A program made the translations under genes and the position numbers. From Megasphaera hominis (GTDB taxonomy: Bacteria > Bacillota > Negativicutes > Veillonellales > Megasphaeraceae), in the NCBI RefSeq assembly GCF_014269395.1, contig NZ_JACOGK010000029.1, positions 1 to 39,565 of the forward strand: a stretch of 39,565 nucleotides of DNA. The letters are read 5' to 3'. The notes under the pieces are model-generated. The model was not told the DNA's origin. It did no database searches and worked only from the letters and a program-made list of their open reading frames with translations. Positions 7,068 through 21,300 of this stretch are shown here, one piece after another (position 1 is the first letter of the stretch; every line of letters begins with the position of its first letter).

Positions 7068-8420
7068 ATGTACAAACTTTCACAAATCGCAGAAGAATAT
7101 CAGAAGAAACTGGTTACACCGGCACAAGCGGCAGCTGTTGTCAAAAGCGGTGACCGCGTATCCTATGGCCTGGGCTGTTCTGCACCGTATGATACGGATA
7201 AGGCCTTGGCTGACCACATTAACAACGATGGCCTGAAGGGGATCGAAATCGTCAATGCAACCATCGTGAAGAACGAAGATTACTTCACCTTTACGGAAAC
7301 GGAATCGAATGACCAGGTCCGCTTCATGTCCGGCCATTTCAATGCCTTCGACCGCAAAATGAATAAAGCCGGCCGCTGCTGGTTTATGCCGCTCCTCTTC
7401 AATGAACTGCCGAAATATTGGGAAGATATTGATGTAGCTATTCTCCAGGTTCATGAAATGGATAAATGGGGCAACTTCAACTTAGGGCCTCAGGTAGCCG
7501 ATTTACGCGGTGTTCTGCGGGCGTCTAAAAAGGTTATCGTTGAGGTCAATAAAAATATGCCGAAGGCTCTGGGCTATGAAACGGAATTGAACATTGCCGA
7601 CGTAGACTACATCGTCGAAGGTTCCAACCACCCCATGCCGATTATTCCCAATAAGCCGGCTACACCGGTCGATGAAAAAATCGCTGATTTTGTCGTGCCC
7701 ATGATTGAAAACGGCAGTACGTTACAGCTCGGCATCGGCGGCCTGCCTGCAGCCATCGGTCATAAACTGGCTGAATCGGATATTCAGGATTTAAGCGGCC
7801 ATACGGAAATGCTCGTCGATCCGTATGTAGAACTGTACGAAGCCGGTAAGATTACAGGCAACAAAAACCGCGATAAGGGCAAGATCATCTACACCTTTGC
7901 CGGCGGTACACAGCGCCTGTATGATTTCATTGATGACAACCAGATTGTCTTCAATGCTCCGGTTAATTACGTTAACAACATTAACGTCGTAGCCAGCATC
8001 GATAAATTCGTTTCCATCAACAGCTGCATCAACCTCGACCTCTACGGCCAGGTCTGCGCTGAATCGGCAGGCTACCGTCACATCAGCGGTACCGGTGGTG
8101 CCCTTGACTTTGCCCAGGGTGCATACCTCTCCCGCGGCGGTAAAGGCTTCATTTGCGTACATTCTACACGGACCCTGAAAGACGGTACGAAGGAATCCCT
8201 CATTCGTCCGACCTTGACGCCGGGTTCCGTCGTTACGACACCGCGTTCGGCTGTTCATTACATCGTTACGGAATATGGCGTAGCGCTCCTCAAGGGCAAG
8301 TCTACGTGGCAGCGTGCAGAAGCACTGATCAACATTGCCGCTCCGGAATTCCGTGAAGAACTCATTAAAGAAGCAGAAAAGATGGGTATTTGGACGAACA
8401 CGAGCAAGACGTCCTACTAA
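7068..8420 (+). CDS. Acetyl-CoA hydrolase/transferase family CoA-transferase (butyryl/4-hydroxybutyryl-CoA:acetate type)
   Basis: This 450-residue enzyme moves CoA between an acyl-CoA and a free acid, usually acetate. The Glu that forms the covalent thioester in 4-hydroxybutyrate CoA-transferase corresponds to E247 in SGHTEMLVDPY. Other family marks are GIGGLPAAIG (222-231), SGTGGALDFAQGAYLSRGGK (340-359) and TPRSAVHYIVTEYGVALLKG near the end. It closely resembles the butyryl-CoA:acetate and 4-hydroxybutyrate transferases of butyrate-forming anaerobes; propionyl-CoA is another possible substrate. AGGAGG lies 10 bases before the start. It has its own promoter, a long hairpin leader and a strong terminator, as expected for a highly expressed fermentation gene. 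A 4-hydroxybutyryl-CoA dehydratase-like gene begins at the far end of this window. Confidence 0.88.
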   Translation: MYKLSQIAEEYQKKLVTPAQAAAVVKSGDRVSYGLGCSAPYDTDKALADHINNDGLKGIEIVNATIVKNEDYFTFTETESNDQVRFMSGHFNAFDRKMNKAGRCWFMPLLFNELPKYWEDIDVAILQVHEMDKWGNFNLGPQVADLRGVLRASKKVIVEVNKNMPKALGYETELNIADVDYIVEGSNHPMPIIPNKPATPVDEKIADFVVPMIENGSTLQLGIGGLPAAIGHKLAESDIQDLSGHTEMLVDPYVELYEAGKITGNKNRDKGKIIYTFAGGTQRLYDFIDDNQIVFNAPVNYVNNINVVASIDKFVSINSCINLDLYGQVCAESAGYRHISGTGGALDFAQGAYLSRGGKGFICVHSTRTLKDGTKESLIRPTLTPGSVVTTPRSAVHYIVTEYGVALLKGKSTWQRAEALINIAAPEFREELIKEAEKMGIWTNTSKTSY

Positions 8421-8440
8421 GCTATACTGTACATACAGAA

Positions 8441-8474
8441 AAAACCGTATTGCCGGCTGGCAATACGGTTTTTT
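8441..8474 (+). terminator. Intrinsic terminator after the CoA-transferase
   Basis: AAAACCGTATTGCC (8441-8454) pairs perfectly with GGCAATACGGTTTT (8459-8472) around a 4-base loop and ends in seven Ts. Confidence 0.92.
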
Positions 8475-8499
8475 TATCAGGCCCGGAAGCCTAAGAAAA

Positions 8500-8523
8500 A
8501 AGACACGTTTTGTCACGTGTCTT
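8500..8523 (-). terminator. Intrinsic terminator of the zinc-ribbon gene
   Basis: AAGACACG and CGTGTCTT form the stem. On the minus strand it begins within the stop codon of the gene ending at 8523 and runs into six Ts. Confidence 0.78.
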
Positions 8524-8723
8524 CAGGTGCCGAAGGCCTTCCATAAACCAAGGACGATAAAGCAGAGTACGATGAGAAAGCTGATGACCCGCGTTTTAGA
8601 GAATATTTTAGGGTCATTTACCGTGCCCGGTGTAGGCGTAGGAGCTTGGACCTGCTGCGTACCGCAGATGGGGCACATACGCACGCCGTCGCGCAGTTCG
8701 GTGCCACATTTTTTGCAAATCAT
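8523..8723 (-). CDS. Zinc-ribbon protein with C-terminal membrane anchor
   Basis: This 66-residue protein starts with a rubredoxin-like zinc ribbon (CKKCGTELRDGVRMCPICGT, four cysteines as two C-x-x-C pairs), followed by a proline-rich linker and one hydrophobic helix at the C-terminus (VISFLIVLCFIVLGLW). It is probably an inner-membrane protein with the ribbon in the cytoplasm. The second of two possible start codons was chosen because AGGAG lies 9 bases upstream of it and directly touches the first. The role is unknown. It is transcribed away from the hydrogenase-maturation operon and probably unrelated. Confidence 0.75.
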   Translation of the reverse strand: MICKKCGTELRDGVRMCPICGTQQVQAPTPTPGTVNDPKIFSKTRVISFLIVLCFIVLGLWKAFGT

Positions 8724-8822
8724 ACCTATCATCTCCTATTCCTATCATAGCATGAGTATCCCGTTGCTGGCTAGAGCCGGCCATTACTTTTCCGGCCGCC
8801 CGTATCACGAAGATTGTATTTA

Positions 8823-8831
8823 TGCTATAAT
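8823..8831 (+). promoter_or_regulatory. Extended -10 promoter of the hydrogenase-maturation operon
   Basis: TGCTATAAT holds a perfect TATAAT (8826-8831) with an extended TGn. The transcript would start near 8838, leaving a leader of about 160 bases before the first gene at 8999. No strong -35 is visible. Confidence 0.55.
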
Positions 8832-8837
8832 AAGGCC

Positions 8838-8982
8838 GTACCCGTGCGCCGAAAGACCTGTCTGACGGCAAACGGGAAAAAAGCCATAGCGTTTTTACTG
8901 CAAAGTGAATACTGCGCAGGTAAGGCGGGCGTACATGCGGCTTCAACAGACCTCTGTGCGGTTATGCCAGAGGTCTTTTTTA
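8838..8982 (+). promoter_or_regulatory. Structured leader with intrinsic terminator: candidate attenuator or riboswitch
   Basis: The leader folds as two units followed by a terminator. Unit 1: CCCGT (8841-8845) with ACGGG (8872-8876), enclosing GCCG (8848-8851) with CGGC (8866-8869). Unit 2: AAGCC (8881-8885) with GGCTT (8939-8943), enclosing about 53 bases. Terminator: AGACCTCTG (8948-8956) with CAGAGGTCT (8968-8976), then six Ts, ending a few bases before the ribosome binding site. A terminator between promoter and first gene implies conditional readthrough. I could not match it to a known riboswitch class or assign an antiterminator. Confidence 0.6.
8948..8981 (+). terminator. Leader terminator of the hydrogenase-maturation operon
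   Basis: A perfect 9-base stem (8948-8956 with 8968-8976), an 11-base loop and a six-T run lie between the promoter at 8823 and the first gene at 8999. The loop-side sequence AGACCT also occurs upstream at 8854-8859, so the 3' arm has an alternative partner in the leader. Confidence 0.75.
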
Positions 8983-8998
8983 TAGGGAGGATACGTGA

Positions 8999-9259
8999 AT
9001 GGGAACCAGAATGGCCTTGATAGGTATTATTGTCAGCGACCGGACAGCAACGGCACAGATCAATGCACTATTACATGAATATGGTGAATATATTGTCGGC
9101 CGTATGGGCATTCCCTGCAAGGAACGGCACGTATCGGTCATCAGCATCATCATTGACGCTCCTCAGGATATTATCAGTACCCTGGCCGGCAAGATCGGCC
9201 AGCTGCCGGCTGTAAGCACGAAGACTATTTACCCGCCCTTACCGGTGCAGGAGAAATAA
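8999..9259 (+). CDS. TM1266-type iron-only hydrogenase system putative regulator
   Basis: This 86-residue protein has the small ferredoxin-like/ACT-type pattern of the TM1266 family: MALIGIIVSDRTATAQINAL, a G-R-M-G-I-P segment, SVISIIIDAP, and a C-terminal LAGKIGQLPAVSTKT strand. The family is known from its repeated location beside the [FeFe]-hydrogenase maturation genes and is thought to be regulatory; no DNA-binding motif is obvious. The ATG at 8999 follows AGGGAGG by 8 bases. As the first gene of this operon it ties the Hyp/NifDK-like genes to an [FeFe] rather than a [NiFe] hydrogenase. Assignment rests on sequence pattern plus context. Confidence 0.75.
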   Translation: MGTRMALIGIIVSDRTATAQINALLHEYGEYIVGRMGIPCKERHVSVISIIIDAPQDIISTLAGKIGQLPAVSTKTIYPPLPVQEK

Positions 9260-9282
9260 TTTTTTTGGAAAGGAACTGGCAT

Positions 9283-10587
9283 ATGATGACGAAACAACAG
9301 GCCTACTCAATTTCTGCAGCCGACCTGGCTGCACGGGGACGCGACCAGATTCCGGCAGAATTGCTTTCTTCTACGCAGCTCATTTATAATTCACCGGCAG
9401 CGCTGGCCTTTAATTCGCCAGGTGCCCGTGGCTTTGGCGTCAAACGGGCCGGCCTTTCGATCCCCGGCTCGGTCATGCTGCTCATCGGCCCGGGCTGCTG
9501 CGGCCGTAATACGACTATCCTCAGTGCCGAAGGCGGCTATGGAGACCGTTTCTTTTTCTATGTACTGGATGAAACGGATATTGTCACAGGCCGGCATTTA
9601 TATAAGATTCCCCGGGCCGTCGAAGAAATCCTCGATGTACTGCCCCAGGCACCGAGTGCTGTCGTCTTGTGTTTGACCTGCGTCGATGCTCTCTTAGGGA
9701 CGGACATGGAACGGGTTTGCCGTAAAGCGGAGGCCCGGGTCCACTTGCCGGTCGTACCGTGCTATATGTATGCCCTGACGCGGGAAGGCCGGCGGCCGCC
9801 TATGGTGGCTGTGCGGCAGATGGTCTATTCCCTCTTAAAGCCCCAGCCGCGGCACCGGCGGGAAGCCAATCTTCTGGGCTTTTTCTCGCCCCTCCAGGAT
9901 GACTGCGAGCTCTACGGGTATTTGCAGCAGCTCGGCATCCAGACTGTGCGGGAAATTGGACGCTGCCGGACCATGGAAGACTATCATCAGCTGTCACGGG
10001 CTAATTTTAATCTCGTCCTGCACCCGGAAGCCCGCCTGGCGGCGCAGGATTTCGAAAAAAATCTGCACATTCCCAGTATCGAACTGACCCGTATTTACGA
10101 GACAGACCGGCTCAGCCGCCAGTATCAGGCCCTGGCGCAGGCCTTAGGCGGTACTATCGACGACCGGGCAGAACGGGAGGCAACAGAAGACCTCGTACGC
10201 CGCGTAGGCCAGCGCTGGCACGGTACGACCGTAGCGGTAGGGGAAATGCTTAACGGCAATGCCTTTGAGCTGGCCCTGACCCTGGCCCGGGCGGGCCTGA
10301 CTGTCAAGGAAATATACGGCAACGTTACGCCCCAGGACTTCGTCTGGATCAAGGCCCTGGCTGCGCTCGCACCGGAAACGAAAATCTATTGTAATTTAGG
10401 TCCTTCTATGCTCTATTATGACCGCAGTACAGGAGCTGCCGATCTGACCCTGGGCGCTGATGCGGCGTGGTATCATCCGCACAGTGTCCATGTCACCTGG
10501 GATGAAGACGTACAGCCCTTTGGCTACGCCGGTACACGGGCTTTATTTTCAGCATTGGATCGTGCCTTGAGCGGGAGGTCTTCATGA
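9283..10587 (+). CDS. Nitrogenase component 1-like protein, NifD/NifE-like
   Basis: This 434-residue protein has the fold pattern of the nitrogenase component 1 (PF00148) superfamily, which includes NifDK, NifEN, BchNB and CfbD. Landmarks line up with NifD: GPGCCGRNTT (C72, C73) with the NifD C88 region, ETDIVTGRHLYKIPRAVEEI with the DIVFGGDKKL segment, and CLTCVDALLGTDMERV (C130, C133) with the NifD C154 segment that normally reads C-P-x-x-L-I-G-D-D. The NifD C62 region (here FNSPGARGFG) has no cysteine, so a full P-cluster is unlikely; a simpler shared [4Fe-4S] cluster is possible. The ATG at 9283 follows AAAGGA by 8 bases. It overlaps the next gene by 4 bases (ATGA). No nif genes are near, so nitrogen fixation is not suggested. 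Confidence 0.75.
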   Translation: MMTKQQAYSISAADLAARGRDQIPAELLSSTQLIYNSPAALAFNSPGARGFGVKRAGLSIPGSVMLLIGPGCCGRNTTILSAEGGYGDRFFFYVLDETDIVTGRHLYKIPRAVEEILDVLPQAPSAVVLCLTCVDALLGTDMERVCRKAEARVHLPVVPCYMYALTREGRRPPMVAVRQMVYSLLKPQPRHRREANLLGFFSPLQDDCELYGYLQQLGIQTVREIGRCRTMEDYHQLSRANFNLVLHPEARLAAQDFEKNLHIPSIELTRIYETDRLSRQYQALAQALGGTIDDRAEREATEDLVRRVGQRWHGTTVAVGEMLNGNAFELALTLARAGLTVKEIYGNVTPQDFVWIKALAALAPETKIYCNLGPSMLYYDRSTGAADLTLGADAAWYHPHSVHVTWDEDVQPFGYAGTRALFSALDRALSGRSS

Positions 10588-11621
10588 GAGGGTTATGGAA
10601 ATATATTTCTCCTTTTGCGCCGGATCAGTCCGGTGCGGCAGCGGTTCTGTATGGCTTGGGCGGTCTCGTCGTCGTGTGTGACGCCGGCGGCTGTGCCGGC
10701 AACATTTGCGGCTTTGATGAGCCCCGCTGGTTTACCGGTGCCCCTAGCGCTGCCTTTAGCGCAGGCCTGCGTGACATGGATGCCATCCTCGGCCGCGACG
10801 ACCGGCTGGTAGATAAACTGTGCGCTGCAGCGGCACAAATTGCAGCCCCTTTTGCAGCCATTATCGGTACACCTGTGCCGGCCGTCATTGCTACGGATTA
10901 TCAGGCCCTGCGGCGTTTGGCAGAAAAGCGCTTGTCCCTGCCTGTCGTCACGATAGAAACAAAGGGGACAGAACGCTATGATACAGGTGCTTCTATGGCC
11001 TATGAAGGACTTTGCCGCCGCTTTGCTAGAAAAGAGCTGGCCCGGCAAAGAGGACGCCTGAACGTCCTGGGCGCCCTGCCCCTCGATACGGGCTGTACGG
11101 AGTATACCTTTTTGCAGGAATTCTTGCGGCACAGGGGCTGGCAGGATGTACGTATTTTTGGTACGCACGGCCTGACAGATTATGAAACCGCCGGCGCGGC
11201 AGAAAAAAATCTCGTCCTGGCCCCAGCGGGCCTGGCTGCGGCACGCTATCTGGAGGAAGCCTTTGGTACGCCCTATGTAGTGGCCTATCCGGTCTTGCCG
11301 AAAGTAGAAAAGCTGCCGCACGACGTGACGGGCAAACGGATTCTCATTGTCCATCAGCAGGTCCTGGCGAATGAAGTGCGCCGTCACCTCAAAGGGGCCG
11401 ATGTAACGGTTGCTACGTGGTTCCTCTTACAGGCTGATTTGGCTCAAGACGGAGACTGCCACCTGCAGGAAGAAGATGACTTTATTCAGTTGGCCGATAA
11501 CGATCGTTTTGATATTATCATAGGCGATGAATTTCTGCGGCGGGCCTTGCCCCACTTCCACGGTACCTTTATCGATCTGCCGCACTTTGCCGTTTCCGGG
11601 AGGTGCTGTGCCTATGACTGA
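10584..11621 (+). CDS. Nitrogenase component 1-like partner protein, NifK/NifN-like
   Basis: This 345-residue protein looks like the shorter, beta-type partner of the preceding gene. VCDAGGCAGNICGFDEPRWF (C32, C37, C42) corresponds to the NifK C95 segment (G-S-Q-G-C-x-x-Y ... E-P), and IIGTPVPAVIATDYQAL to the segment where NifK has C153 and G-D-D; that cysteine is lost here. ETKGTERYDTGASMAYEGL resembles the loop that follows in this superfamily. It is shorter than NifK (about 520 residues), so part of the C-terminal domains is reduced. Its start overlaps the preceding stop (ATGA), which favours equal production of a heteromeric complex, and its end overlaps hypF by 8 bases. Function is not established. 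Confidence 0.7.
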   Translation: MRGLWKYISPFAPDQSGAAAVLYGLGGLVVVCDAGGCAGNICGFDEPRWFTGAPSAAFSAGLRDMDAILGRDDRLVDKLCAAAAQIAAPFAAIIGTPVPAVIATDYQALRRLAEKRLSLPVVTIETKGTERYDTGASMAYEGLCRRFARKELARQRGRLNVLGALPLDTGCTEYTFLQEFLRHRGWQDVRIFGTHGLTDYETAGAAEKNLVLAPAGLAAARYLEEAFGTPYVVAYPVLPKVEKLPHDVTGKRILIVHQQVLANEVRRHLKGADVTVATWFLLQADLAQDGDCHLQEEDDFIQLADNDRFDIIIGDEFLRRALPHFHGTFIDLPHFAVSGRCCAYD

Positions 11622-13893
11622 TACGTGGGTCATTCGCGTCTACGGTATCGTCCAGGGCGTCGGTTTCCGTCCTTTCGTCAGCCGCCTGGCCCGGCGCTTT
11701 CGTCTGTGCGGGTCTGTCTGCAATAAAGGCTCGTATGTGGAAATACAGGTGCAAGGTGACGGATCTACGTGTCAAGCGTTTTGTCAGGCTCTGCCTAAGG
11801 AAGCGCCGCCCCGCTCGTCTATCCTGAAAATCGACGTGAACCGGGAAGCGCAGCCGCCCTATGAGGATTTCCAGATTATCGAAAGTATCAAAGAGGCAGG
11901 CGAAACCTTCGTTTCGCCGGATATTGCTATTTGCGATGCCTGCAAGCAGGAACTCTTTGATCCTGCGAACCGCCGCTATCTTCATCCCTTTATCAATTGT
12001 ACGGCCTGCGGCCCGCGCCTGACGATTCTGGACGGTATGCCTTATGACAGGGAACGGACGAGTATGGGGAAATTTCCCATGTGCCCGGCGTGCTACGAAG
12101 AATATACGCATGCCGAAACGCGTCGCTACGATGCCCAGCCCGTGTGCTGCAACGACTGCGGGCCTGAAGTCTATCTCTTAGGCCGGCCCGAGCGGCGCCA
12201 TGAAGCCATTAAAGAAACGCGCCGCGTCATTGCTGCCGGCGGCCTGGCAGCTATCAAGGGTATTGGCGGTTTTCATTTCTGCTGTGATGCTGCAAACGAA
12301 GACGCCGTCGGCCGTTTGCGCGCACTGAAACACCGGCCTGTAAAGCCCTTTGCCGTCATGGCCCGGGATCTTGCTGTCGTACGCCGCGAATGCGTGACGA
12401 CAGAAGCAGAAGAAGCGGTCCTGGACGGGCACCAGAAACCGATTATCCTATTGGAAAAACGTCCGGAAGGCCGCATCAGCCCGGTCGTTGCGCCGGACAA
12501 TCCCTTTCTGGGCGTCATGCTGCCCTATACACCGCTCCATTTATTGCTGTTTTCCTATCCCGACGGCCAGGACTTTCCGGACGCATTGGTCATGACCAGC
12601 GCCAATCCGTCCGGGGCGCCCTTGTGCCGCACGGACGAAGATATCCTGGCTCTGACGGATATGTGTGATTGTATCCTCAGCCACAACCGGGATATCCGCC
12701 TGCGGGCCGACGATTCGGTCATGATGTTTTATGAAGACGAGCCCTATATGATCCGCCGTTCCCGGGGTTACGCGCCTTTGCCGTATCTGCTGGAAGGGAT
12801 GGAGGGACACGTACTCGGTATCGGCGGCGAGCTGAAAAACACCTTTTGCCTGGGTAAGGACAGTCTCTTTTACCTGTCGCCCCACATTGGCGATATGGCA
12901 GACATTCGCACGCAGGAGGCCCTCAGGGAAAGCCTCGTGCGGCTGGAAGAGCTCCTGGAAACGACGCCGCAGCTCGTGGCCTGCGATCTCCATCCCCGCT
13001 ATGAAACGACGCAGCTGGCCGGGACCCTGGGCCTGCCGCTTCTCTCCGTCCAGCACCATTACGCCCATTTCGTTGCGTGTCTGGCTGAAAACAATATGCC
13101 CGGTCCGGCCATCGGTCTCATTTGTGACGGTACGGGCTATGGCACAGACGGCACGATCTGGGGCGGCGAAGTCCTGATTGGCGATTACCATGGCTTTCAG
13201 CGCTTCACGTCGCTCGTGCCCTATGATCAATATGGTGGTGATGCAGCGGCCCGCGAGGGCTGGCGCATTGCGGCCGCTCTGATTCATGCCTGTGCGCCAG
13301 AGGCGGCGGGCTCTATCGTAGAGACACTGGGCCTTTGCACGGCGCAGGAATTTGCTACCCAGCGCTTTATGTATGAGCATCGCCTGAACTGCGTTCGTTC
13401 TACCAGTACGGGCCGCCTCTACGATGCCGTCAGCGCCATCCTGGGCTTTTGCCGGGCTTCGACCTTTGAAGGAGAGGCGGCTATGCGCCTGGAATTTGCT
13501 GCCCGCCGCTGGCAAAAGCAGAAAAAAACGGCAGGAGAGGATACCCTGCCGCACGGGTCCGGTCCTTATATACGGACGGATGCGCTCATCCGGGAAATTG
13601 TAAAAAAACGGCTGGCCCATGCAGATCCGGACTATCTGGCCTGGTTCTTCCATGACCGCCTGGCAGGGCTTTGCGTCGCAGCCTGTGTGGCTGCCCGGGC
13701 GCAGAGCCATATAGAAACCGTTGCTTTAAGCGGCGGCGTATTTCAAAATCGCTTGTTCCTGGCTCTTTGTGAGAAAAAGCTGCAGCACGCAGGCTTTTCC
13801 GTGCTCCGGCATCATTTGGTGCCGGCCAATGATGGGGGTCTTGCCTTAGGGCAGGCCGTGCGCGCTGCTGTGTACCTGCAAGAACAGGAATGA
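11614..13893 (+). CDS. hypF: Carbamoyltransferase HypF
   Basis: HypF makes carbamoyl-AMP from carbamoyl phosphate and ATP and transfers the carbamoyl group to the C-terminal cysteine of HypE, the first step to the cyanide ligands of hydrogenase iron. The 759-residue protein shows the full domain order: acylphosphatase (VQGVGFRP at 13-20), two zinc-finger units (CDACKQELFD, CTACGP, CPACYEEY, CCNDCGP), a YrdC-like domain (about 200-380; KHRPVKPFAVM) and a Kae1-like transferase domain with HHYAHFVACL and a late SGGVFQNRL. The ATG at 11614 was chosen because GGGAGG lies 10 bases upstream; a longer frame starting at 11527 lies inside the previous gene. Length is normal. Confidence 0.95.
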   Translation: MTDTWVIRVYGIVQGVGFRPFVSRLARRFRLCGSVCNKGSYVEIQVQGDGSTCQAFCQALPKEAPPRSSILKIDVNREAQPPYEDFQIIESIKEAGETFVSPDIAICDACKQELFDPANRRYLHPFINCTACGPRLTILDGMPYDRERTSMGKFPMCPACYEEYTHAETRRYDAQPVCCNDCGPEVYLLGRPERRHEAIKETRRVIAAGGLAAIKGIGGFHFCCDAANEDAVGRLRALKHRPVKPFAVMARDLAVVRRECVTTEAEEAVLDGHQKPIILLEKRPEGRISPVVAPDNPFLGVMLPYTPLHLLLFSYPDGQDFPDALVMTSANPSGAPLCRTDEDILALTDMCDCILSHNRDIRLRADDSVMMFYEDEPYMIRRSRGYAPLPYLLEGMEGHVLGIGGELKNTFCLGKDSLFYLSPHIGDMADIRTQEALRESLVRLEELLETTPQLVACDLHPRYETTQLAGTLGLPLLSVQHHYAHFVACLAENNMPGPAIGLICDGTGYGTDGTIWGGEVLIGDYHGFQRFTSLVPYDQYGGDAAAREGWRIAAALIHACAPEAAGSIVETLGLCTAQEFATQRFMYEHRLNCVRSTSTGRLYDAVSAILGFCRASTFEGEAAMRLEFAARRWQKQKKTAGEDTLPHGSGPYIRTDALIREIVKKRLAHADPDYLAWFFHDRLAGLCVAACVAARAQSHIETVALSGGVFQNRLFLALCEKKLQHAGFSVLRHHLVPANDGGLALGQAVRAAVYLQEQE

Positions 13894-13923
13894 GAAGCGT
13901 ATTTTCTAAAAGGAGGAATTACT

Positions 13924-14133
13924 ATGTGTGTAGGGTTACCGGCACGAGTGGTAGAGGTAAAAAAAGGCATGGCATTGGTCGACGCATCCGGTGCCAAGCG
14001 GGAAGTTTCGGCGTCCCTCTTGGATGAACTGGATCCGGGCGATTACGTCATGGTCCACGCCGGCGTAGCTATTGCCAAGATTACGGCCAGTGATGAAGAC
14101 GAAAGCGACGAAATTTTGGAGGATTTGCTCTAA
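13924..14133 (+). CDS. hypC: Hydrogenase maturation chaperone HypC
   Basis: HypC is a small OB-fold chaperone that, with HypD, carries the iron while CN and CO are added. This 69-residue protein begins with the diagnostic MCVGLPARVVEV, in which C2 is the essential iron-binding cysteine exposed after removal of Met1. The core DELDPGDYVMVHAGVAIAKI is also typical, and the acidic tail is slightly short. AAAGGAGG lies about 8 bases before the start. The stop overlaps the hypD start by one base (TAATG), so HypC and HypD are likely made together. In [NiFe] systems HypC also escorts the large subunit; no such subunit is in this window. Confidence 0.95.
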   Translation: MCVGLPARVVEVKKGMALVDASGAKREVSASLLDELDPGDYVMVHAGVAIAKITASDEDESDEILEDLL

Positions 14134-15188
14134 TGTCTATAGAAAAAAAGGATCTGGCCCGCCATATCGTTACGTCCTATGCCGGGCCGAAAATCAGAAT
14201 CATGGAAGTCTGCGGCACCCATACGCACGAAATTTTCCGCTATGGCATCCGCCAGCTGCTGCCACCGGCAGTCGATCTTATTTCCGGCCCGGGCTGCCCG
14301 GTCTGCGTTACGCCGCCTGGATTTATTGACGAAGCTATCTATTTGGCCTTAGAAAAAGGGGCTGTTATTTGCACCTTTGGCGACCTCATCCGCGTGCCCG
14401 GTTCGGCGCAAAGCCTGGCTGATGCCCGCAGCCGCGGTGCGGCTGTTCAGGTCGTCTATTCCCAGCTCGATGCCGTGAAATATGCGGCAGCGCATAGAGA
14501 TAAGGAAGTCGTCTTTTTGTCGGTCGGCTTTGAAACGACAACACCCGGTGCCTGCCTGGCCGTACTTCAGGCCAGGGACGAAGGTATCACCAATTTCTCT
14601 CTCCTGACGGCCAATAAGACCATGCCCCAGGCCTATGAAGCCCTGAAGGATAGTGCCGATGCCTTCTTGTATCCGGGGCACGTCCAGGCTATTATGGGCA
14701 CGGAGATTTGCGAGAAATTAAAGGCTGACGGCATTTCCGGTGTCGTTACGGGCTTTACAGCGCGGGAACTCCTGACGGCCTTAGCCGTCGTTCTGACAGA
14801 ATTTCCTAAGGGCAAGCCCTTCTTCAAAAACTGCTATCCCCGGGTCGTCACGGCAGCAGGCAGCGTGAGCGGCCAGAAGCTCCTCTCTCAGGTCATGGAA
14901 GCGTGCGATACAGAATGGCGCGGTCTCGGCGTGATTCCCCAATCGGGGCTTACCCTGCGGCCGGAGTTTGCCGCGTACGATGCGCGTGTGAAATTTGCCG
15001 TGCCGCCTATGGACGGCCGCAGTAATCCGGCCTGCCGCTGCGGCGATATTCTGCGCGGTGATTGCCGGCCACCGCAGTGCCCGCTCTTCGGCAAGGTTTG
15101 TACGCCTGAGCACCCTGTCGGCGCCTGCATGGTATCCCGTGAAGGGGCCTGCTCGGCCTATTATCAGTATGGAGGTCTTACATTATGA
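14133..15188 (+). CDS. hypD: Hydrogenase iron-ligand assembly protein HypD
   Basis: HypD is the [4Fe-4S] scaffold on which Fe(CN)2CO is built together with HypC and HypE. The 351-residue protein carries all diagnostic motifs: EVCGTHTHE with C27, SGPGCPVCVTP with C55 and C58, FGDLIRVPGS, SVGFETTTPG, and a C-terminal cluster-binding block with cysteines in CRCGDILRGDC, PPQCPLFGKVC and the final GACMVSREGACSAYY. The start overlaps hypC by one base and the end overlaps hypE by four (ATGA). Nothing appears to be missing, so the ligand-assembly chemistry is probably intact. Confidence 0.96.
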   Translation: MSIEKKDLARHIVTSYAGPKIRIMEVCGTHTHEIFRYGIRQLLPPAVDLISGPGCPVCVTPPGFIDEAIYLALEKGAVICTFGDLIRVPGSAQSLADARSRGAAVQVVYSQLDAVKYAAAHRDKEVVFLSVGFETTTPGACLAVLQARDEGITNFSLLTANKTMPQAYEALKDSADAFLYPGHVQAIMGTEICEKLKADGISGVVTGFTARELLTALAVVLTEFPKGKPFFKNCYPRVVTAAGSVSGQKLLSQVMEACDTEWRGLGVIPQSGLTLRPEFAAYDARVKFAVPPMDGRSNPACRCGDILRGDCRPPQCPLFGKVCTPEHPVGACMVSREGACSAYYQYGGLTL

Positions 15189-16189
15189 GTGATGTCATTA
15201 CACTGGCCCATGGAGCTGGCGGTAAACAGACGGCCGAGCTGATTGACTCGGTCTTTAAGGCCCATTTTGCCAACCCGGAATTTACGGGCGATGATGCGGC
15301 TATTCTATCCCTGGGCGGCCAGGATCTGGCCTTTACGACCGATGGCTTCATCGTTTCGCCGTCTGATTTTCCCGGTGGCAATATCGGCAAATTGAGTATT
15401 TGCGGTACCGTCAATGACCTGTCCTGCATGGGGGCACAGCCGCTTTATCTGGCCTGCGCCTTTGTCATTGAAGAAGGCCTGCCTATGAGTGACCTGGAAC
15501 GGTACGCCGCAGCTATGGAAAAAACAGCGGCCGAAGCCGGCGTGCGCATTGTGGCCGGTGACACGAAGGTCGCCGGCAAGGGCCAGGTAGACCGCCTCTT
15601 TATTACGACGACGGGTATTGGCCGCCGTCTGCCCGGTGTCCGCCTGTCGGGCACAGAAGCGAAGCCCGGCGACGCCGTCATCGTGACCGGCGATATTGGC
15701 CGCCACGGCTGCACCGTCCTTCTGAGCCGCGAGCAGTTCGGCATCGATGCCGACGTGACCAGTGACTGCGCTCCTTTGTGGGGCACCGTAAAATCCATGC
15801 TCGGCGTCACACAGGATATTCACGTCATCCGCGATGCGACACGTGGCGGTGTCGGTACGGTCCTTTACGAAATTGCCGCCCAAAGCCACGTTGGCATCCG
15901 CCTGGACCGGGCCGCTATTCCTGTGGCACCGGCTGTCAGTGGCGTTTGTGGTATGCTGGGATTGGAACCGCTCTACCTGGCCTGCGAAGGACGGCTCGTC
16001 GTCTTTGCACCGCAGGCACAGGCGGACGCCATTGTCACAGCCTTGCGGCAAGGACCGTATTCCGGTAATGCAGCGATTATCGGCACGGTAACGGCAGAGC
16101 ACGCCGAACGGGTCACCATCCGTACGGAAATCGGTGCCGAAACGATTTTACCGCCACCAGGTGGCGAATTGCTGCCGCGTATTTGTTAA
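15185..16189 (+). CDS. hypE: Hydrogenase maturation dehydratase HypE
   Basis: HypE dehydrates the carbamoyl group received from HypF on its last cysteine to a thiocyanate, then donates cyanide to iron on HypC-HypD. This 334-residue protein has the AIR synthase/PurM fold: an N-terminal AHGAGGKQT loop, GDDAAIL, TTDGFIVSP, GTVNDLSCMGAQPLYLA and RDATRGGVGTVLYEIA. The chain ends with the diagnostic PRIC, so the carbamoyl-accepting cysteine is the last residue. It overlaps hypD by four bases. A 38-base gap with a repeated 11-mer separates it from hydF. Confidence 0.96.
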   Translation: MSDVITLAHGAGGKQTAELIDSVFKAHFANPEFTGDDAAILSLGGQDLAFTTDGFIVSPSDFPGGNIGKLSICGTVNDLSCMGAQPLYLACAFVIEEGLPMSDLERYAAAMEKTAAEAGVRIVAGDTKVAGKGQVDRLFITTTGIGRRLPGVRLSGTEAKPGDAVIVTGDIGRHGCTVLLSREQFGIDADVTSDCAPLWGTVKSMLGVTQDIHVIRDATRGGVGTVLYEIAAQSHVGIRLDRAAIPVAPAVSGVCGMLGLEPLYLACEGRLVVFAPQAQADAIVTALRQGPYSGNAAIIGTVTAEHAERVTIRTEIGAETILPPPGGELLPRIC

Positions 16190-16195
16190 CCGATA

Positions 16196-16226
16196 GGGTA
16201 TATAGAGAGAAATGAGGGTATATAGA
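16196..16226 (+). repeat. Direct repeat between hypE and hydF
   Basis: GGGTATATAGA occurs at 16196-16206 and again at 16216-16226, exactly 20 bases apart. The second copy ends one base before the hydF start codon. The GAGGG before the second copy (16214-16218) may act as the hydF ribosome binding site. Confidence 0.6.
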
Positions 16227-16227
16227 T

Positions 16228-17430
16228 ATGGGGATGAATGATACACCATCAGGGGAACGGGTGCATATCGGCTTTTTTGGCCGCCGTAATGCCGGTAAGT
16301 CCAGCGTCGTCAATGCTGTTACGGGCCAGAACCTGGCCATCGTTTCGGACACGAAGGGAACGACGACGGATCCCGTCTATAAGGCTATGGAATTATTGCC
16401 CTTAGGGCCGGTCATGATTATTGACACGCCGGGCATTGACGATACGGGAGCTTTAGGGGAACTGCGCGTGGAACGGACGCGGCAGGTCCTGGGTAAGACG
16501 GATATTGCCGTTTTGGTCGTCGATGCCACAGAAGGGCTGCAGCAGAGTGACCGGGATATTTTGCAGCTCATTGGCGAAAAGAAGGTACCGTATTTGCTCG
16601 TCTATAATAAGAGCGATCTTACGGCTGTACCGGAAACCGTGCCGGATACGGTCCTGTACGTCAGTGCCCTGCACGGCACGGGCATAGGAGAGCTCAAGGA
16701 ACGCCTGGCCCGTCTGAAGCCTGACACCGAGGCGGCGCCTATCGTAGCTGATATGGTACAACCGGGCGATTTCTTTGTCCTCGTCGTGCCTGTCGATTCG
16801 GCAGCTCCGAAGGGACGGCTCATCCTGCCGCAACAGCAGACCATCCGGGATATCCTTGATGCCGATGGCACAGCCATTGTCGTTAAGGAGACGGGTCTTA
16901 AGGAGACACTGCAAAAGCTGGGCCGGCCGCCGAAAATGGTCATCACGGACAGCCAGGCCTTTAAACGCGTAGCGGCCGACACGCCGGAGAGCGTGCCGCT
17001 CACGTCCTTTTCTATTCTCATGGCCCGTCATAAGGGCTTTTTGGCAACGGCTGTCCAGGGCGTAGCTGCCTTGAAGAATCTGCGCGATGGTGACCGCGTC
17101 CTTATTTCCGAAGGCTGCACCCATCACCGCCAGTGTGAAGATATCGGTACTGTAAAGATCCCGCACTGGCTAAGGGAATTTACCGGCCGGGACCTGGTGC
17201 TGGAAACGTCATCGGGCCGCGATTTTCCCATGGATTTGACGCCCTATGCCTTGGTCATCCATTGTGGTGGCTGCATGCTCAATGAACGGGAAATACAGAG
17301 CCGTATGGAACGGGCCAGCCGGCAAGGCGTAGCCATTACCAATTACGGCATCTTTATTGCCTACGTGCACGGCATTCTGGCACGCAGTCTTTCCATCTTT
17401 CCCGATTTGCAGCGGCTCATACAGCCGTAA
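16228..17430 (+). CDS. hydF: [FeFe]-hydrogenase H-cluster maturation GTPase HydF
   Basis: HydF is the GTPase and iron-sulfur scaffold that delivers the two-iron subcluster to apo-HydA of [FeFe] hydrogenases. The 400-residue protein has a GTPase domain (GRRNAGKSS at 18-26, DTPGIDD at 66-72, NKSD at 127-130), a dimerisation middle part, and the cluster-binding C-terminal domain with C297-T-H299 and H345-C346-G-G-C349, matching the C-x-H ... H-C-x-x-C pattern of the family. All key residues are present. It follows hypE by 38 bases with no terminator between, so it is probably in the same operon. Its usual partners HydE and HydG are not in this window. Confidence 0.94.
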   Translation: MGMNDTPSGERVHIGFFGRRNAGKSSVVNAVTGQNLAIVSDTKGTTTDPVYKAMELLPLGPVMIIDTPGIDDTGALGELRVERTRQVLGKTDIAVLVVDATEGLQQSDRDILQLIGEKKVPYLLVYNKSDLTAVPETVPDTVLYVSALHGTGIGELKERLARLKPDTEAAPIVADMVQPGDFFVLVVPVDSAAPKGRLILPQQQTIRDILDADGTAIVVKETGLKETLQKLGRPPKMVITDSQAFKRVAADTPESVPLTSFSILMARHKGFLATAVQGVAALKNLRDGDRVLISEGCTHHRQCEDIGTVKIPHWLREFTGRDLVLETSSGRDFPMDLTPYALVIHCGGCMLNEREIQSRMERASRQGVAITNYGIFIAYVHGILARSLSIFPDLQRLIQP

Positions 17431-17439
17431 GGAGTACGT

Positions 17440-18024
17440 ATGGATTATTGGCTCAGTAAAAAAATACAGAGCCTGTGCGCACCTTCCTGTCTGCGCACCG
17501 GTTCTATTTGGCTGGCCCGGGCCGGTTTCTGGGTCTATATTATCTACGGTATAGTCCAGTGGTTCCGGCCCGGTCGGCCGGAAGGGCAGCGACAGCGCCG
17601 CCGGTCTTTATTGGAGGCGCTCTTTTCTGTCCTGTGCAGTTCCCTTATGTCCTATGTCATCGCCCGTATTTGGCGGCGGCCGCGTCCTTTTGCAGCCCAT
17701 AGGGATATCCGGCAGTATGTAGCCCATAAGGATAATGCTTCTTTTCCCAGCAATCATACGATGAATGCCTTTGCTGCCGGTCTGGCTGTATTTTATCGTT
17801 CCAAACTGGCCGGCTTGTTCCTGATCCTCTGGAGCCTGCTCATTGGTTTCTCCCGTATCGTATGCGGCATTCACTATGTCAGTGATATTCTTGGCGGCCT
17901 GGTCCTGGGGCTGGCAGGCTGGCGCGTGACGGCAAGAAATAAAGGCCTGCGCTGGCTGGCTATGGGACTGCCTTGGTTGTGGACCTGGCTGACAGAAAGA
18001 ATCTGTCAGCGGGAGCGGCGCTGA
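17440..18024 (+). CDS. PAP2-family membrane phosphatase
   Basis: This 194-residue membrane protein has the three parts of the PAP2 phosphatase site: RRPRPFAAH, PSNHTMNAFAAG, and SRIVCGIHYVSDILGG, in which the serine-histidine and final histidine-aspartate positions are present. Several hydrophobic helices surround them. Members act on undecaprenyl diphosphate (BcrC type), phosphatidic acid or related lipid phosphates at the outer face of the inner membrane. The ribosome binding site TAAGGAG overlaps the hydF stop codon, so it is cotranscribed with the hydrogenase-maturation genes, but a functional link is not evident. It ends before a terminator. Confidence 0.88.
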   Translation: MDYWLSKKIQSLCAPSCLRTGSIWLARAGFWVYIIYGIVQWFRPGRPEGQRQRRRSLLEALFSVLCSSLMSYVIARIWRRPRPFAAHRDIRQYVAHKDNASFPSNHTMNAFAAGLAVFYRSKLAGLFLILWSLLIGFSRIVCGIHYVSDILGGLVLGLAGWRVTARNKGLRWLAMGLPWLWTWLTERICQRERR

Positions 18025-18247: not shown

Positions 18248-18316
18248 AAAAGTATCAATGAGTGGTACATATAGTATGCTCAAACGCTTATAAATTACAG
18301 GAGAGGTGAATTGATT

Positions 18317-21300
18317 ATGTCAGAAAAAGTTTTTAAAACAATGGATGGGAACGAAGCGGCTGCGTACATATCGTATGCTTTTACGGAAATTGCTTCTATC
18401 TTCCCGATTACCCCGTCGTCGCCAATGGCTGAACACGTAGATGAATGGGCTGCACACGGACGGAAAAACCTGTTTGGCACGACCGTACAGGTACAGGAAA
18501 TGCAGTCTGAAAAAGGTGCTGCCGGTGCGATGCACGGTGCCTTGAACGCCGGTGCCCTGACGACGACTTTCACATCGTCGCAAGGCATGATGATCATGCT
18601 TTCAAACATGTTCAAAATTTCCAGCGAATTACTGCCGGGCGTATTCCAGGTTGCTTCCCGTACGGTTGCTACGAACGGGTATACCATTTTTGCCGGTCAT
18701 GACGACGCTATGGCCATGCGTGGTACGGGCATCAGCATGATGGCTGAAGCCAGTGTCCAGGAAGTCATGGACCTGTCTGCTGTTGTTCATGCCACAGCTA
18801 TTTCCTGCCGCATTCCTATTCTGAACTTCTTTGATGGCTTCCGTACATCTCATGAAATTCAGAAGATTGAAGTCATTCCTTATGATGAACTGCGGCCAAT
18901 GCTCGACATGGATGCCGTTCAGGCCTTCCGCGACCGCGGCATGAATCCGGATAATCCGGAAGCTATTTCCTTCTGCGAACCGGCTGAAACCTTCATGCAG
19001 CATCGTGAATCGCTGAATAAATTCTATGACCGTGTACCGGATGTAGCCGAAGACTACATGAAGAAGATCAGTGAAATTACAGGCCGCGAATACCACCTGT
19101 TTAACTATACCGGCGCTCCTGATGCCGAATACGTTCTCGTAGCCATGGGCTCGGGCGCACAGACCATTGAAGAAACAGTCAAGCTGCTCGTTTCTAAGGG
19201 CGAAAAGGTCGGCTGTATCAATGTTCACATGTTCCGTCCGTGGTCGGAAAAACATTTCATTGCCGCCCTGCCGAAGACAGTCAAGAAGATTGCCGTTTTG
19301 GACCGCACGAAAGAAACCGGCGCCAATGGCGAACCGCTCTATCATAGTGTAGCCGCTACCTATGCCTGTGCCGATAACGCACCGAAGGTATATCATGGCC
19401 GTTATGGTATTGCTTCGAAGGAATTCCTGCCGGGCGACGTCGTAGCTGCCTTTGAAAACCTGAAAGCAGATAAACCGAAAAATGACTTTACGCTCAGTAT
19501 TGTCGATGATGTTACGTATAAATCCCTGCCGCGTGTACCGGGTATCGAAACGGGCGGCGAAGGCCTGAAAGCCTGCAAATTCTGGGGCTTCGGTTCTGAT
19601 GGTACAGTAGGTGCCAATAAGAGCGCGATCAAGATTATCGGCGATAATACCGATATGTATGCCCAGGCATACTTTGCCTATGACTCCAAGAAGTCCGGCG
19701 GCGTTACTGTATCCCACCTGCGTTTTGGCAACACGCCGATCAAGATGCCGTATCTGATCAACAGCGCTGATTTCATCGCCTGCCATCGTCAGTCCTACGT
19801 CCATGGCTTCGATCTCCTGCGCGGTATTAAGAAGGGTGGTACATTCCTTCTTAATACGGTTTGGAAACCGGAAGAATTGGATGCTAAATTACCGGCCCGC
19901 TTAAAACGCTCGATTGCCCAAAACGACGTAGATTTCTATATTATCGACGCTGTCGGCATTGCACAGGATCTGGGTCTCGGCGGCCGTATCAATATGATCA
20001 TGCAGTCGGCCTTCTTCAAACTGTCCGAAGTTATTCCTCTTGATCTGGCTATTGATAAACTGAAAGAATCGGTCGTACATTCCTATGGCAAGAAAGGCCA
20101 GAAGATCGTCGACATGAACAATGCTGCCATCGATAAGGGCCTCGAAGCTATCGTTAAAATCGACGTTCCCGCTGCCTGGGCAGATGCACAGGATGAACCG
20201 GTTGATCTTTCGCACCATACGCAGTTCTTTAGAGATTTTGCTATTCCTGTCAATGCCCTGGAAGGCGATGACCTGCCGGTTAGTGCATACAATGGATTTG
20301 AAGATGGCCGTTGGCCGACCGGTACGTGTGCAGAAGAAAAACGTGGCGTTGCCATGTTCGTACCGAGCTGGGATGCTGAAAAATGTATCGGCTGTAACCA
20401 GTGCTCCTTCGTATGTCCGCATGCAGCTATCCGTCCGTTCCTGATGACAGAAGCTGAAGCCGCCGCTGCACCGGAAGGCTATCAGGATAAAGAAATCAAA
20501 GCAGCACCTGGCTATAAGTTCAATATCGTTGTTTCCGTCATGGACTGCCTGGGCTGCGGCAGCTGTACACATGTCTGCCCGAAAGAAGCTCTGACTATGA
20601 CGCCGTTCGACGACGAAGAATACAAAGCAGCTCTCTGGGATTATGTCATTGCCCTGCCGGCCAAGAAGAACCCCATGGACAAGAACACAGTTATTGGCAG
20701 CCAGTTCGAACAGCCGCTGCTTGAATTCTCCGGCGCTTGCGCAGGTTGTGCTGAAACACCGTATTGTAAAGTCGTTACGCAGCTCTTTGGCGATCGCATG
20801 ATGGTAGCCAACGCGCATGGTTGCTCCAGTGTTTGGGGCGGCAGTGCACCGGACTGCGGTTACACGAAGAACAGTCAGGGTCACGGCCCGGCTTGGTCTA
20901 CATCCCTCTTCGAAGACAATGCAGAATATGGCTTCGGTATGTTCCTGGCTGAAAAAGCAGAACGCAACCTCCTCGAAAAATACATTGACGACGCTATGGA
21001 TGTCGCCAGCCCGAAACTCCAGGAAGCTTTCAAAGACTGGAAAGAACATAAGATGGAAGGCGACGGCTCCCGCGAACGTTCGGATACCATCATTGCTCTG
21101 TTAGAAGCAGAAAAAGCCGGCAAACCGGAACTGGAACAGGTTTATAACCTGAAGAAGTTCCTCGTTAAACGCAGCCAGTGGATCTTCGGCGGCGACGGCT
21201 GGGCTTACGATATCGGCTATGGCGGTCTGGATCACGTCCTGGCTCAGGGCGAAGACGTCAACGTCCTCGTATTCGATACAGAAGTATACTCCAATACGGG

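What the first reader, a model, noticed from the sequence alone, without database searches (positions are those of the whole stretch)
8999..17430. Mixed operon: TM1266-type protein, two NifD/K-like proteins, HypFCDE and HydF, a possible alternative [FeFe]-hydrogenase maturation route
Seen: the genes lie in tight order with overlaps (ATGA, 8 bases, TAATG, ATGA) and end in HydF. Known: HypFCDE makes Fe(CN)2CO for [NiFe] hydrogenases; HydF with radical-SAM HydE and HydG makes the H-cluster of [FeFe] hydrogenases. Here a complete HypFCDE set sits with HydF and no HydE, HydG, HypA or HypB. Inference: in this lineage Hyp proteins may supply the cyanide/CO-iron unit and the NifD/K-like pair may act as scaffold or reductase, with HydF handing over the product. 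If HydE and HydG are missing from the genome, this would be an undescribed maturation system.
Basis: partly seen in the sequence, partly recalled or inferred. Interest (0 to 1): 0.92.

Follow-up and report, generated by a model that had tools for sequence, protein, structure and literature searches.

The report
HydG-less iron-hydrogenase assembly gene cluster
In many gut bacteria the enzyme that normally makes the carbon monoxide and cyanide parts of the iron-only hydrogenase active site seems to be missing, and a conserved gene cluster built from nickel-hydrogenase and nitrogenase-like assembly proteins appears to stand in for it; this is inferred from genomes, not yet shown at the bench.

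Summary
In detail: window 8999-17430 is one tight gene run, TM1266 - NifD-like - NifK-like - HypF - HypC - HypD - HypE - HydF. It is a shortened copy of a conserved cluster, NifH1D1K1-HypFCDE-(TM1266)-NifH2D2K2, often with HydF and sometimes HydE, found in Megasphaera kin, Lachnospiraceae, acetogenic Clostridium and Coriobacteriaceae. No genome is held for the window, so relatives were tested. In two class draws (196 Clostridia, 120 Negativicutes) the cluster's NifD occurs in 17 genomes and HydG in 218, never together. Of 50 genomes picked for the cluster, 2 have HydG. Of 62 cluster genomes, 62 have HydA, 60 HydE and 59 HydF over cut-off, but only 11 a [NiFe] large subunit. The cluster's HypD is a separate lineage from [NiFe]-locus HypD. 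One genome has HydA, the cluster, HydF and HydE in one run, without HydG. Against it: 54 Clostridia and 10 Negativicutes have HydA with neither HydG nor the cluster, and the window lacks NifH and the second NifDK pair. A conserved leader RNA without an Rfam match precedes the cluster in many loci. Function is inferred.

The parts
8826..8981 (+). Leader: TATAAT (8826-8831), CTGACGGCAAAC at 8862, terminator-like hairpin 8948-8976 with T run 8976-8981, just before the first gene
   Evidence: sequence; fold -19.1 kcal/mol, z -2.41; the script finds such a hairpin before the first gene in 8 of 11 Megasphaera/Anaeroglobus-type loci (L001, L002, L004-L007, L014, L018; not L003, L008, L009); no Rfam match. 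TATAAT was read by eye; the promoter scan does not list it
8999..9259 (+). TM1266-family small protein (putative [FeFe]-hydrogenase system regulator)
   Evidence: TIGR03959, 113 bits, E 4e-33; PF21699
9283..10587 (+). NifD1: nitrogenase-component-1-like subunit, 434 aa
10584..11621 (+). NifK1: partner nitrogenase-like subunit, 345 aa (fused to NifD1 in 5 of 35 other loci looked at)
11614..13893 (+). HypF carbamoyltransferase
   Evidence: TIGR00143, 733 bits (run from 11608); VQGVGFRP, CxxC and HHYAH motifs
13924..14133 (+). HypC chaperone with N-terminal Met-Cys
   Evidence: TIGR00074, 69 bits; MCVG
14133..15188 (+). HypD of the cluster lineage
   Evidence: TIGR00075, 392.9 bits; on the cluster side of the HypD tree
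15185..16189 (+). HypE with C-terminal PRIC
   Evidence: TIGR02124, 405 bits; PRIC end
16228..17430 (+). HydF GTPase, H-cluster scaffold/carrier
   Evidence: TIGR03918, 562.3 bits; P-loop, CTHHRQCEDIG and HCGGC

Best explanation
The cluster replaces HydG in making the [2Fe] part of the [FeFe]-hydrogenase H-cluster. Shown by comparison: cluster genomes have HydA, nearly all HydE and HydF, but (with two exceptions in the picked set) no HydG over cut-off and mostly no [NiFe] large subunit; their HypD is a separate lineage, and the Hyp motifs checked are kept in nearly all copies. Inferred mechanism: HypF and HypE make cyanide from carbamoyl phosphate (instead of from tyrosine); HypC-HypD assemble an Fe-CN-CO unit; one or both NifHDK-like complexes act as ATP-driven low-potential reductases and/or NifEN-like scaffolds that reduce or rearrange this unit and perhaps supply CO; HydE and HydF then build and deliver the [2Fe] precursor to HydA. 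Which NifHDK complex does which step is not known.
For: Mutual exclusion: HydG over cut-off 126 of 196 Clostridia, cluster NifD1 7 of 196, both 0; HydG 92 of 120 Negativicutes, NifD1 10 of 120, both 0; one-sided Fisher 6e-4 and 1e-7, 0.0017 and 5e-7 without the centre genomes. HydG over cut-off in 2 of 50 genomes picked for the cluster (four of the 50, G001, G005, G007 and G039, are also among the 17 of the draws). Of 62 cluster genomes: HydA 62, HydE 60, HydF 59, HypD 62, [NiFe] large subunit 11, HypB 20. All 8 genomes with a second HypD are among the 11 with a [NiFe] large subunit. HypD tree: 72 cluster rows against 15 rows from [NiFe]/HypB regions, split by a 100/100 branch, the two copies of 7 genomes on opposite sides. 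Gene context: HydE-HydF between NifD1 and NifK1 in L035, L060, L064; HydF in 31, HydE in 15, HydG in 0 of 80 loci. L184 has HydA-NifH1-NifD1-NifK1-HypF-C-D-E-TM1266-NifD2-NifK2-HydF-HydE, all on one strand, its HydA with TSCCPGW, MPCLAKKHE and EVMACPGGCVGGG. NifH copies keep four cysteines in 147 of 147 aligned rows, two of them in the motifs recalled as the FeS ligands. C. ljungdahlii (G025) has one HydG-profile hit, of 68 bits (cut-off 312), at the place of its HydE; C. autoethanogenum, recalled as its close relative, yielded an [FeFe]-hydrogenase/formate dehydrogenase complex with activity (passages of PMC6288185).
Against: No biochemistry. Two cluster genomes also have full-length HydG. 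Lack of HydG does not imply the cluster: 61 Clostridia of the draw are HydA+ and HydG-, only 7 of them NifD1+; of 18 Negativicutes with neither, 10 have HydA. The window lacks NifH and NifDK2 and its genome is not held. Species are related, so the Fisher values overstate independence. The HypD tree warns of long branches that meet, among them the join of the [NiFe] and cluster rows. HypCD is known to make Fe(CN)2CO while HydG makes Fe(CO)2CN (recalled), so ligands would need rearranging. Many test genomes are drafts or MAGs, and the tool shows no completeness for them. HypA was not searched. PMC9431212 proposes a HydG for C. autoethanogenum, which I could not test.
Confidence: 0.72

Rival explanations
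1. The cluster makes a different, unknown Fe-CN-CO or reduced cofactor for another enzyme; HydF and HydE sit nearby only by shared regulation, and HydG is missing because these lineages load HydA in some other way.
For: The two NifHDK-like complexes have no known product; HydA+ genomes without HydG and without the cluster exist (54 of 185 HydA+ Clostridia; 10 Negativicutes), so another route to HydA exists there, or HydG is lost or missed.
Against: HydG exclusion in both classes, HydE-HydF inside the NifD1-NifK1 pair and the HydA-to-HydE run in L184. Neighbours other than the marker genes were not surveyed, so another client enzyme is not excluded.
Confidence: 0.15
2. Ordinary [NiFe]-hydrogenase maturation genes that happen to lie next to hydF; HydG is present but missed in drafts.
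For: 11 of 62 have a [NiFe] large subunit and 20 of 62 HypB; G022, G025 and G037 (C. ragsdalei, C. ljungdahlii, C. drakei) have a [NiFe] large subunit and a single HypD, so there the cluster's Hyp may serve both.
Against: 51 of 62 have no [NiFe] large subunit; the HypD split; the HydG profile found 218 of 316 genomes in the same kind of search, yet no HydG over cut-off in G039, whose locus title is the complete C. carboxidivorans P7 chromosome.
Confidence: 0.06
3. A redundant or conditional second route: the cluster is an alternative H-cluster pathway kept beside or alternating with HydG, for example for low tyrosine, low SAM or redox stress, rather than a strict replacement.
For: C. drakei and C. 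thailandense have both; a leader RNA before the cluster suggests control by a ligand.
Against: 48 of 50 picked and 17 of 17 sampled cluster genomes have no HydG over cut-off.
Confidence: 0.07

Closest known systems
HydEFG [FeFe]-hydrogenase maturation
   Same: HydF present; HydE and HydA present in nearly all relatives' genomes; TM1266 regulator family
   Different: HydG absent; HypFCDE and nitrogenase-like complexes in its place
HypABCDEF [NiFe]-hydrogenase maturation
   Same: HypFCDE with the catalytic motifs checked
   Different: No [NiFe] large subunit in 51 of 62 genomes, HypB in 20 of 62, separate HypD lineage, steady partnership with NifHDK-like proteins and HydF/HydE
NifEN / nitrogenase / DPOR (BchNB) and other nitrogenase-like reductases
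   Same: Component-1 fold, paired subunits, NifH-type partner in relatives; NifE the nearest solved sequence for NifD1, NifK1 and NifK2
   Different: Only 13-19% identity to solved chains in the structural alignments; two different pairs in one cluster; linked to hydrogenase maturation
Acetogenic Clostridium survey, PMC9431212 (passages seen)
   Same: Reports that hydG was not found in five of eight acetogens and that HypCDEF stand without HypAB in five of eight
   Different: Treats the two gaps as separate puzzles in the passages seen; its one hit for 'nitrogenase' is in the reference list

Membership tests
HydEFG H-cluster maturation system | HydF | tested here: met
   window HydF 562.3 bits; 59 of 62 cluster genomes over cut-off, G012 in two pieces, G009 and G050 without
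HydEFG H-cluster maturation system | HydE | tested here: met
   met in relatives only: 60 of 62 cluster genomes over cut-off, not G004, G012 in pieces; none in the window
HydEFG H-cluster maturation system | HydG | tested here: not met
   over cut-off in 2 of 50 picked and 0 of 17 in the class samples; below-cut-off hits of about 170-220 bits end near profile position 370-403 of 470 and look like ThiH (name recalled)
HydEFG H-cluster maturation system | a client [FeFe]-hydrogenase HydA | tested here: met
   62 of 62 cluster genomes by PF02906
[NiFe]-hydrogenase Hyp maturation | HypC, HypD, HypE, HypF | tested here: met
   all four in the window over cut-off; motifs
[NiFe]-hydrogenase Hyp maturation | client [NiFe] large subunit | tested here: not met
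   11 of 62 cluster genomes only
[NiFe]-hydrogenase Hyp maturation | nickel insertion protein HypB | tested here: not met
   over cut-off in 20 of 62 only
[NiFe]-hydrogenase Hyp maturation | nickel insertion protein HypA | not tested
   no search was made
Nitrogenase / NifEN scaffold | component-1 fold | tested here: met
Nitrogenase / NifEN scaffold | cluster-binding cysteine set of NifD/NifK or NifE/NifN | tested here: inconclusive
   invariant C72 C73 C130 C133 C160 in NifD1 and C37 C42 in NifK1; ligation not modelled, and stretches near these motifs have low model confidence
Nitrogenase / NifEN scaffold | NifH-type reductase partner | tested here: inconclusive
   NifH1 in 78 of 80 relative loci, P-loop and cysteines kept, but none in the window

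The most novel reading that the evidence does not exclude
A second natural biosynthesis of the H-cluster: cyanide from carbamoyl phosphate through HypF-HypE, Fe-CN-CO assembly on HypC-HypD, and two nitrogenase-like, ATP-driven complexes that reduce and rebuild this unit (and may make its CO from CO2), with HydE and HydF finishing the job, the whole set in many lineages under a new regulatory RNA class that senses a pathway ligand. It would have taken the place of radical-SAM HydG in lineages of Bacillota and Actinomycetota.
Probability: 0.4. Interest if true: 0.97.

Novelty: new variant of a known kind. Interest (0 to 1): 0.9.

Why it matters
HydG is taken as the source of the CO and cyanide ligands in H-cluster assembly. 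A HydG-free route would join three cofactor machineries (Hyp, Nif, Hyd) in one pathway, explain the missing hydG and the orphan hypCDEF of gas-fermenting Clostridium, cover common gut hydrogen producers, and offer a new maturation kit for making hydrogenases. It makes direct tests possible in organisms that already have genetics.

Tried and rejected
Own genome of the window: not held, so relatives stand in. Plasmid search with HypD-HypE gave 20 records at 66-73% DNA identity over at most 18% of the query, HypD/HypE genes or unannotated stretches; set aside. HydG-profile hits near 200 bits were not counted as HydG because they lie below the curated cut-off of 312 and miss the C-terminal part of the profile. 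Weak NifD hits (E 1e-20 to 1e-59) in G111, G113, G167, G175, G181, G245, G272 and G283 were not counted as NifD1: G111 and G245 are NifD2 sets with HydE nearby, G113, G167, G175 and G181 more distant NifHDK sets, G272 and G283 25% alike over NifD1. G020 was dropped from the 80-genome set to fit the limit; it had no HydG over cut-off. In 9 of the 10 HydA+ Negativicutes with neither HydG nor NifD1 (not G249) the genes shared by three or more genomes near hydF or hydE, besides HydF and HydE, read by eye as housekeeping genes; no HydG substitute stood out. Rfam gave nothing for the leader RNA: no match at gathering for the window; in seven loci only tRNA and CRISPR matches, none in the leader; none up to E 1 for window 8400-9100; for L005 and L043 only hits of 11.7 to 22 bits, all far below their cut-offs. 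Covariation of the leader RNA is weak: 0 of 5 predicted pairs has a change on both sides, and the outer stem is only suggestive. PMC10054779 (passages) lists HydE, HydF and HydG for a rumen OTU and was set aside as not about this cluster. Paper searches with answers; none of the titles and abstract starts listed there names a nitrogenase-like/Hyp route to the H-cluster, but lists were cut and the library lacks most subscription papers.
Full report
What is in the window. The stretch 8999-17430 holds TM1266, NifD1, NifK1, HypF, HypC, HypD, HypE and HydF on the + strand, each identified by profile. tblastn with reference proteins finds no HydE, HydG, HydA, NifH or second NifDK pair in the window. 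Downstream lie a PAP2 phosphatase (17440-18024) and a large ORF (18311-21829) that reads by eye as pyruvate:ferredoxin oxidoreductase; I did not count them as part.

Relatives. NifD1 has more than 2,400 protein relatives. One scan of the genome collection (one genome for each of 84,980 species) gave 483 stretches that encode a relative, the best 80 of which became loci L001-L080; what follows on lineages rests on these 80. Titles show Megasphaera and Anaeroglobus, Lachnospiraceae, acetogenic Clostridium, Oscillospiraceae and Ruminococcaceae MAGs, Coriobacteriaceae and Atopobiaceae MAGs, and one Lentisphaeria MAG. Mapping of marker genes shows a conserved cluster: NifH1-NifD1-NifK1-HypF-HypC-HypD-HypE, a second set NifH2/NifD2/NifK2, TM1266, and often HydF, sometimes HydE. 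In the 43 loci of at least 19 kb: NifD1, NifK1, HypF, HypC, HypD and HypE 43 each, NifH1 42, NifD2 42, NifK2 40, NifH2 31, TM1266 25, HydF 16, HydE 9, HydG 0, HydA 0. In L035, L060 and L064 HydE and HydF lie between NifD1 and NifK1, in L047 HydE alone. In 5 of 35 loci looked at NifD1 and NifK1 are fused.

Whole-genome tests. HydG over cut-off: 2 of 50 genomes picked because they carry the cluster (C. drakei and C. thailandense). In an even draw of 196 Clostridia, HydG 126 and NifD1 7, none with both; in 120 Negativicutes, HydG 92 and NifD1 10, none with both. NifD1 here means the hits with E below 1e-160; eight genomes with weaker hits were left out as other NifD types. One-sided Fisher 6.1e-4 and 1.1e-7; without the centre genomes 0.0017 and 4.8e-7, and 9.7e-6 for Negativicutes when three genomes already known to carry the cluster are left out. 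These values treat species as independent, which they are not. In the 14 control genomes HydG was over cut-off in one.

A set of 80 genomes (62 with the cluster: 49 of the 50 picked plus 13 from the draws; and the 18 Negativicutes with neither gene) was then searched. Of the 62: HydA 62, HydE over cut-off 60, HydF 59, HypD 62, HypB 20, [NiFe] large subunit 11. So 51 genomes hold HypD and HydA but no [NiFe] large subunit. Eight of the 62 have two HypD, and all eight are among the 11 with a [NiFe] large subunit. In the HypD tree the 72 cluster rows are one side of a 100/100 branch against 15 rows from [NiFe] or HypB regions (20 regions were fetched, 15 gave a row), and the two copies of seven genomes fall on opposite sides; the program warns of long branches that meet, so the exact join is unsure. 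The window's HypD lies in the Megasphaera group (99/92), 74% identical to the nearest row.

Results against the reading. HydG and the cluster together leave many genomes unexplained: HydA is in 185 of 196 Clostridia; 124 of these have HydG, 7 NifD1 and 54 neither. Of the 18 Negativicutes with neither, 10 have HydA, and of these 9 have HydE, 9 HydF and 5 HypD. Draft quality may explain some, not clearly all. Two of the 54 Clostridia, G111 and G245, carry HydE near a NifH2D2K2 set, which hints that this second complex is the one closest to HydE. The window locus itself lacks NifH and NifD2K2; whether its genome has them elsewhere is unknown.

Proteins. HypE ends in PR[IV]C in 71 of 71 cluster copies, HypC starts with Met-Cys in 74 of 74, HypD keeps the three motifs checked in 72 of 72; for HypF the acylphosphatase motif is kept in 72 of 73 and the histidine motif in 70 of 73. 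NifH1 and NifH2 keep the P-loop (101 of 101 and 52 of 52) and four cysteines in 147 of 147 aligned rows; some of these rows come from overlapping loci of one genome. Profiles of NifD1, NifK1 and NifK2 match solved NifE best (E about 6e-15, 2e-11 and 7e-23), NifD2 only weakly. AlphaFold models of NifD1 (pLDDT 85.3) and NifK1 (84.7) have the nitrogenase component-1 fold; short stretches are under pLDDT 50. A shared fold does not show a function.

Mechanism, inferred. HydG normally makes CO and cyanide from tyrosine (passages of PMC9431212). HypF starts from carbamoyl phosphate, and the HypC-HypD scaffold makes Fe(CN)2CO (abstract starts; the rest recalled). Fe(CN)2CO plus a further Fe and two CO has the 2 CN and 3 CO of the H-cluster, but the ligands must be redistributed and the iron reduced. 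NifH-driven complexes are suited to low-potential reduction and NifEN to scaffolding, and nitrogenase-type proteins can reduce CO2 to CO (all recalled). Hence the proposal; none of these steps is shown here.

Physiology. C. ljungdahlii (G025) gave one HydG-profile hit of 68 bits, at the place of its HydE. PMC9431212 also found no hydG there and reports orphan HypCDEF, without linking the two in the passages seen; it proposes a HydG with an unusual motif for C. autoethanogenum, which I could not test. C. autoethanogenum, recalled as a close relative, yielded a hydrogenase/formate dehydrogenase complex with activity (passages of PMC6288185; the primary paper was not read). PMC9004356 maps required genes of that species; passages seen do not name this locus and its table was not readable here.

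Leader RNA. A motif TGACGG..AGG-N-CC.AGC.G.AA stands before NifH1 in many loci: 24 pattern hits in the loci held at that point, all 43-484 bases upstream of NifH1 on its strand; three pairs are the same place held twice, so 21 places. A model from 18 copies found 37 matches at E up to 1 in 90 cluster loci (1.58 Mb; 17 of the 37 are training copies or the same place as one, and match by construction) and none in 91 other loci (0.91 Mb). Of the 37, 36 end 2-442 bases before NifH1 and one stands before HypC in L184. Sources include Lachnospiraceae, Coriobacteriaceae and Atopobiaceae records. No Rfam family fits. Clostridium loci have another conserved leader (9 pattern hits, 8 places, all before NifH1), and Megasphaera loci and the window a third form, in 8 of 11 Megasphaera/Anaeroglobus-type loci with a hairpin and T run found by script just before the first gene. 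Whether these are one class is open; the model did not find the window's leader at E up to 1.

Noticed in passing
L184 3437-3494 and 8887-8947; L045 9063-9118; 34 other matches upstream of NifH1 (list): Conserved leader RNA without Rfam match: 36 of 37 model matches end 2-442 bases before NifH1 and one stands before HypC; none in 91 control loci. Candidate riboswitch or attenuator.
   Followed up: partly
window 8826-8981: Leader with a terminator-like hairpin right before TM1266; 8 of 11 Megasphaera/Anaeroglobus-type loci show the like by script.
   Followed up: partly
L211 12429-16787 (G245) and L212 (G111): HydE with NifH2-NifD2-NifK2 nearby in Clostridia without HydG and without NifD1; in L211 genes that read as an ABC transporter follow.
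   Followed up: partly
G249, G257, G322, G358, G361: Negativicutes with HydA but no HydG over cut-off, no NifD1 and no HypD: no known CO/CN source for the H-cluster.
   Followed up: partly
54 genomes of the Clostridia draw: HydA+ genomes with neither HydG nor NifD1; HydE and HydF not searched in them.
   Followed up: no
L213-L216: More distant NifHDK-like sets (NifD and NifK 30-41%, NifH about 60% alike to set 2) without Hyp or Hyd neighbours among the markers mapped.
   Followed up: no
L024, L063, L180, L181, L182: NifD1 and NifK1 in one reading frame of 791-870 aa, 5 of 35 loci looked at.
   Followed up: no
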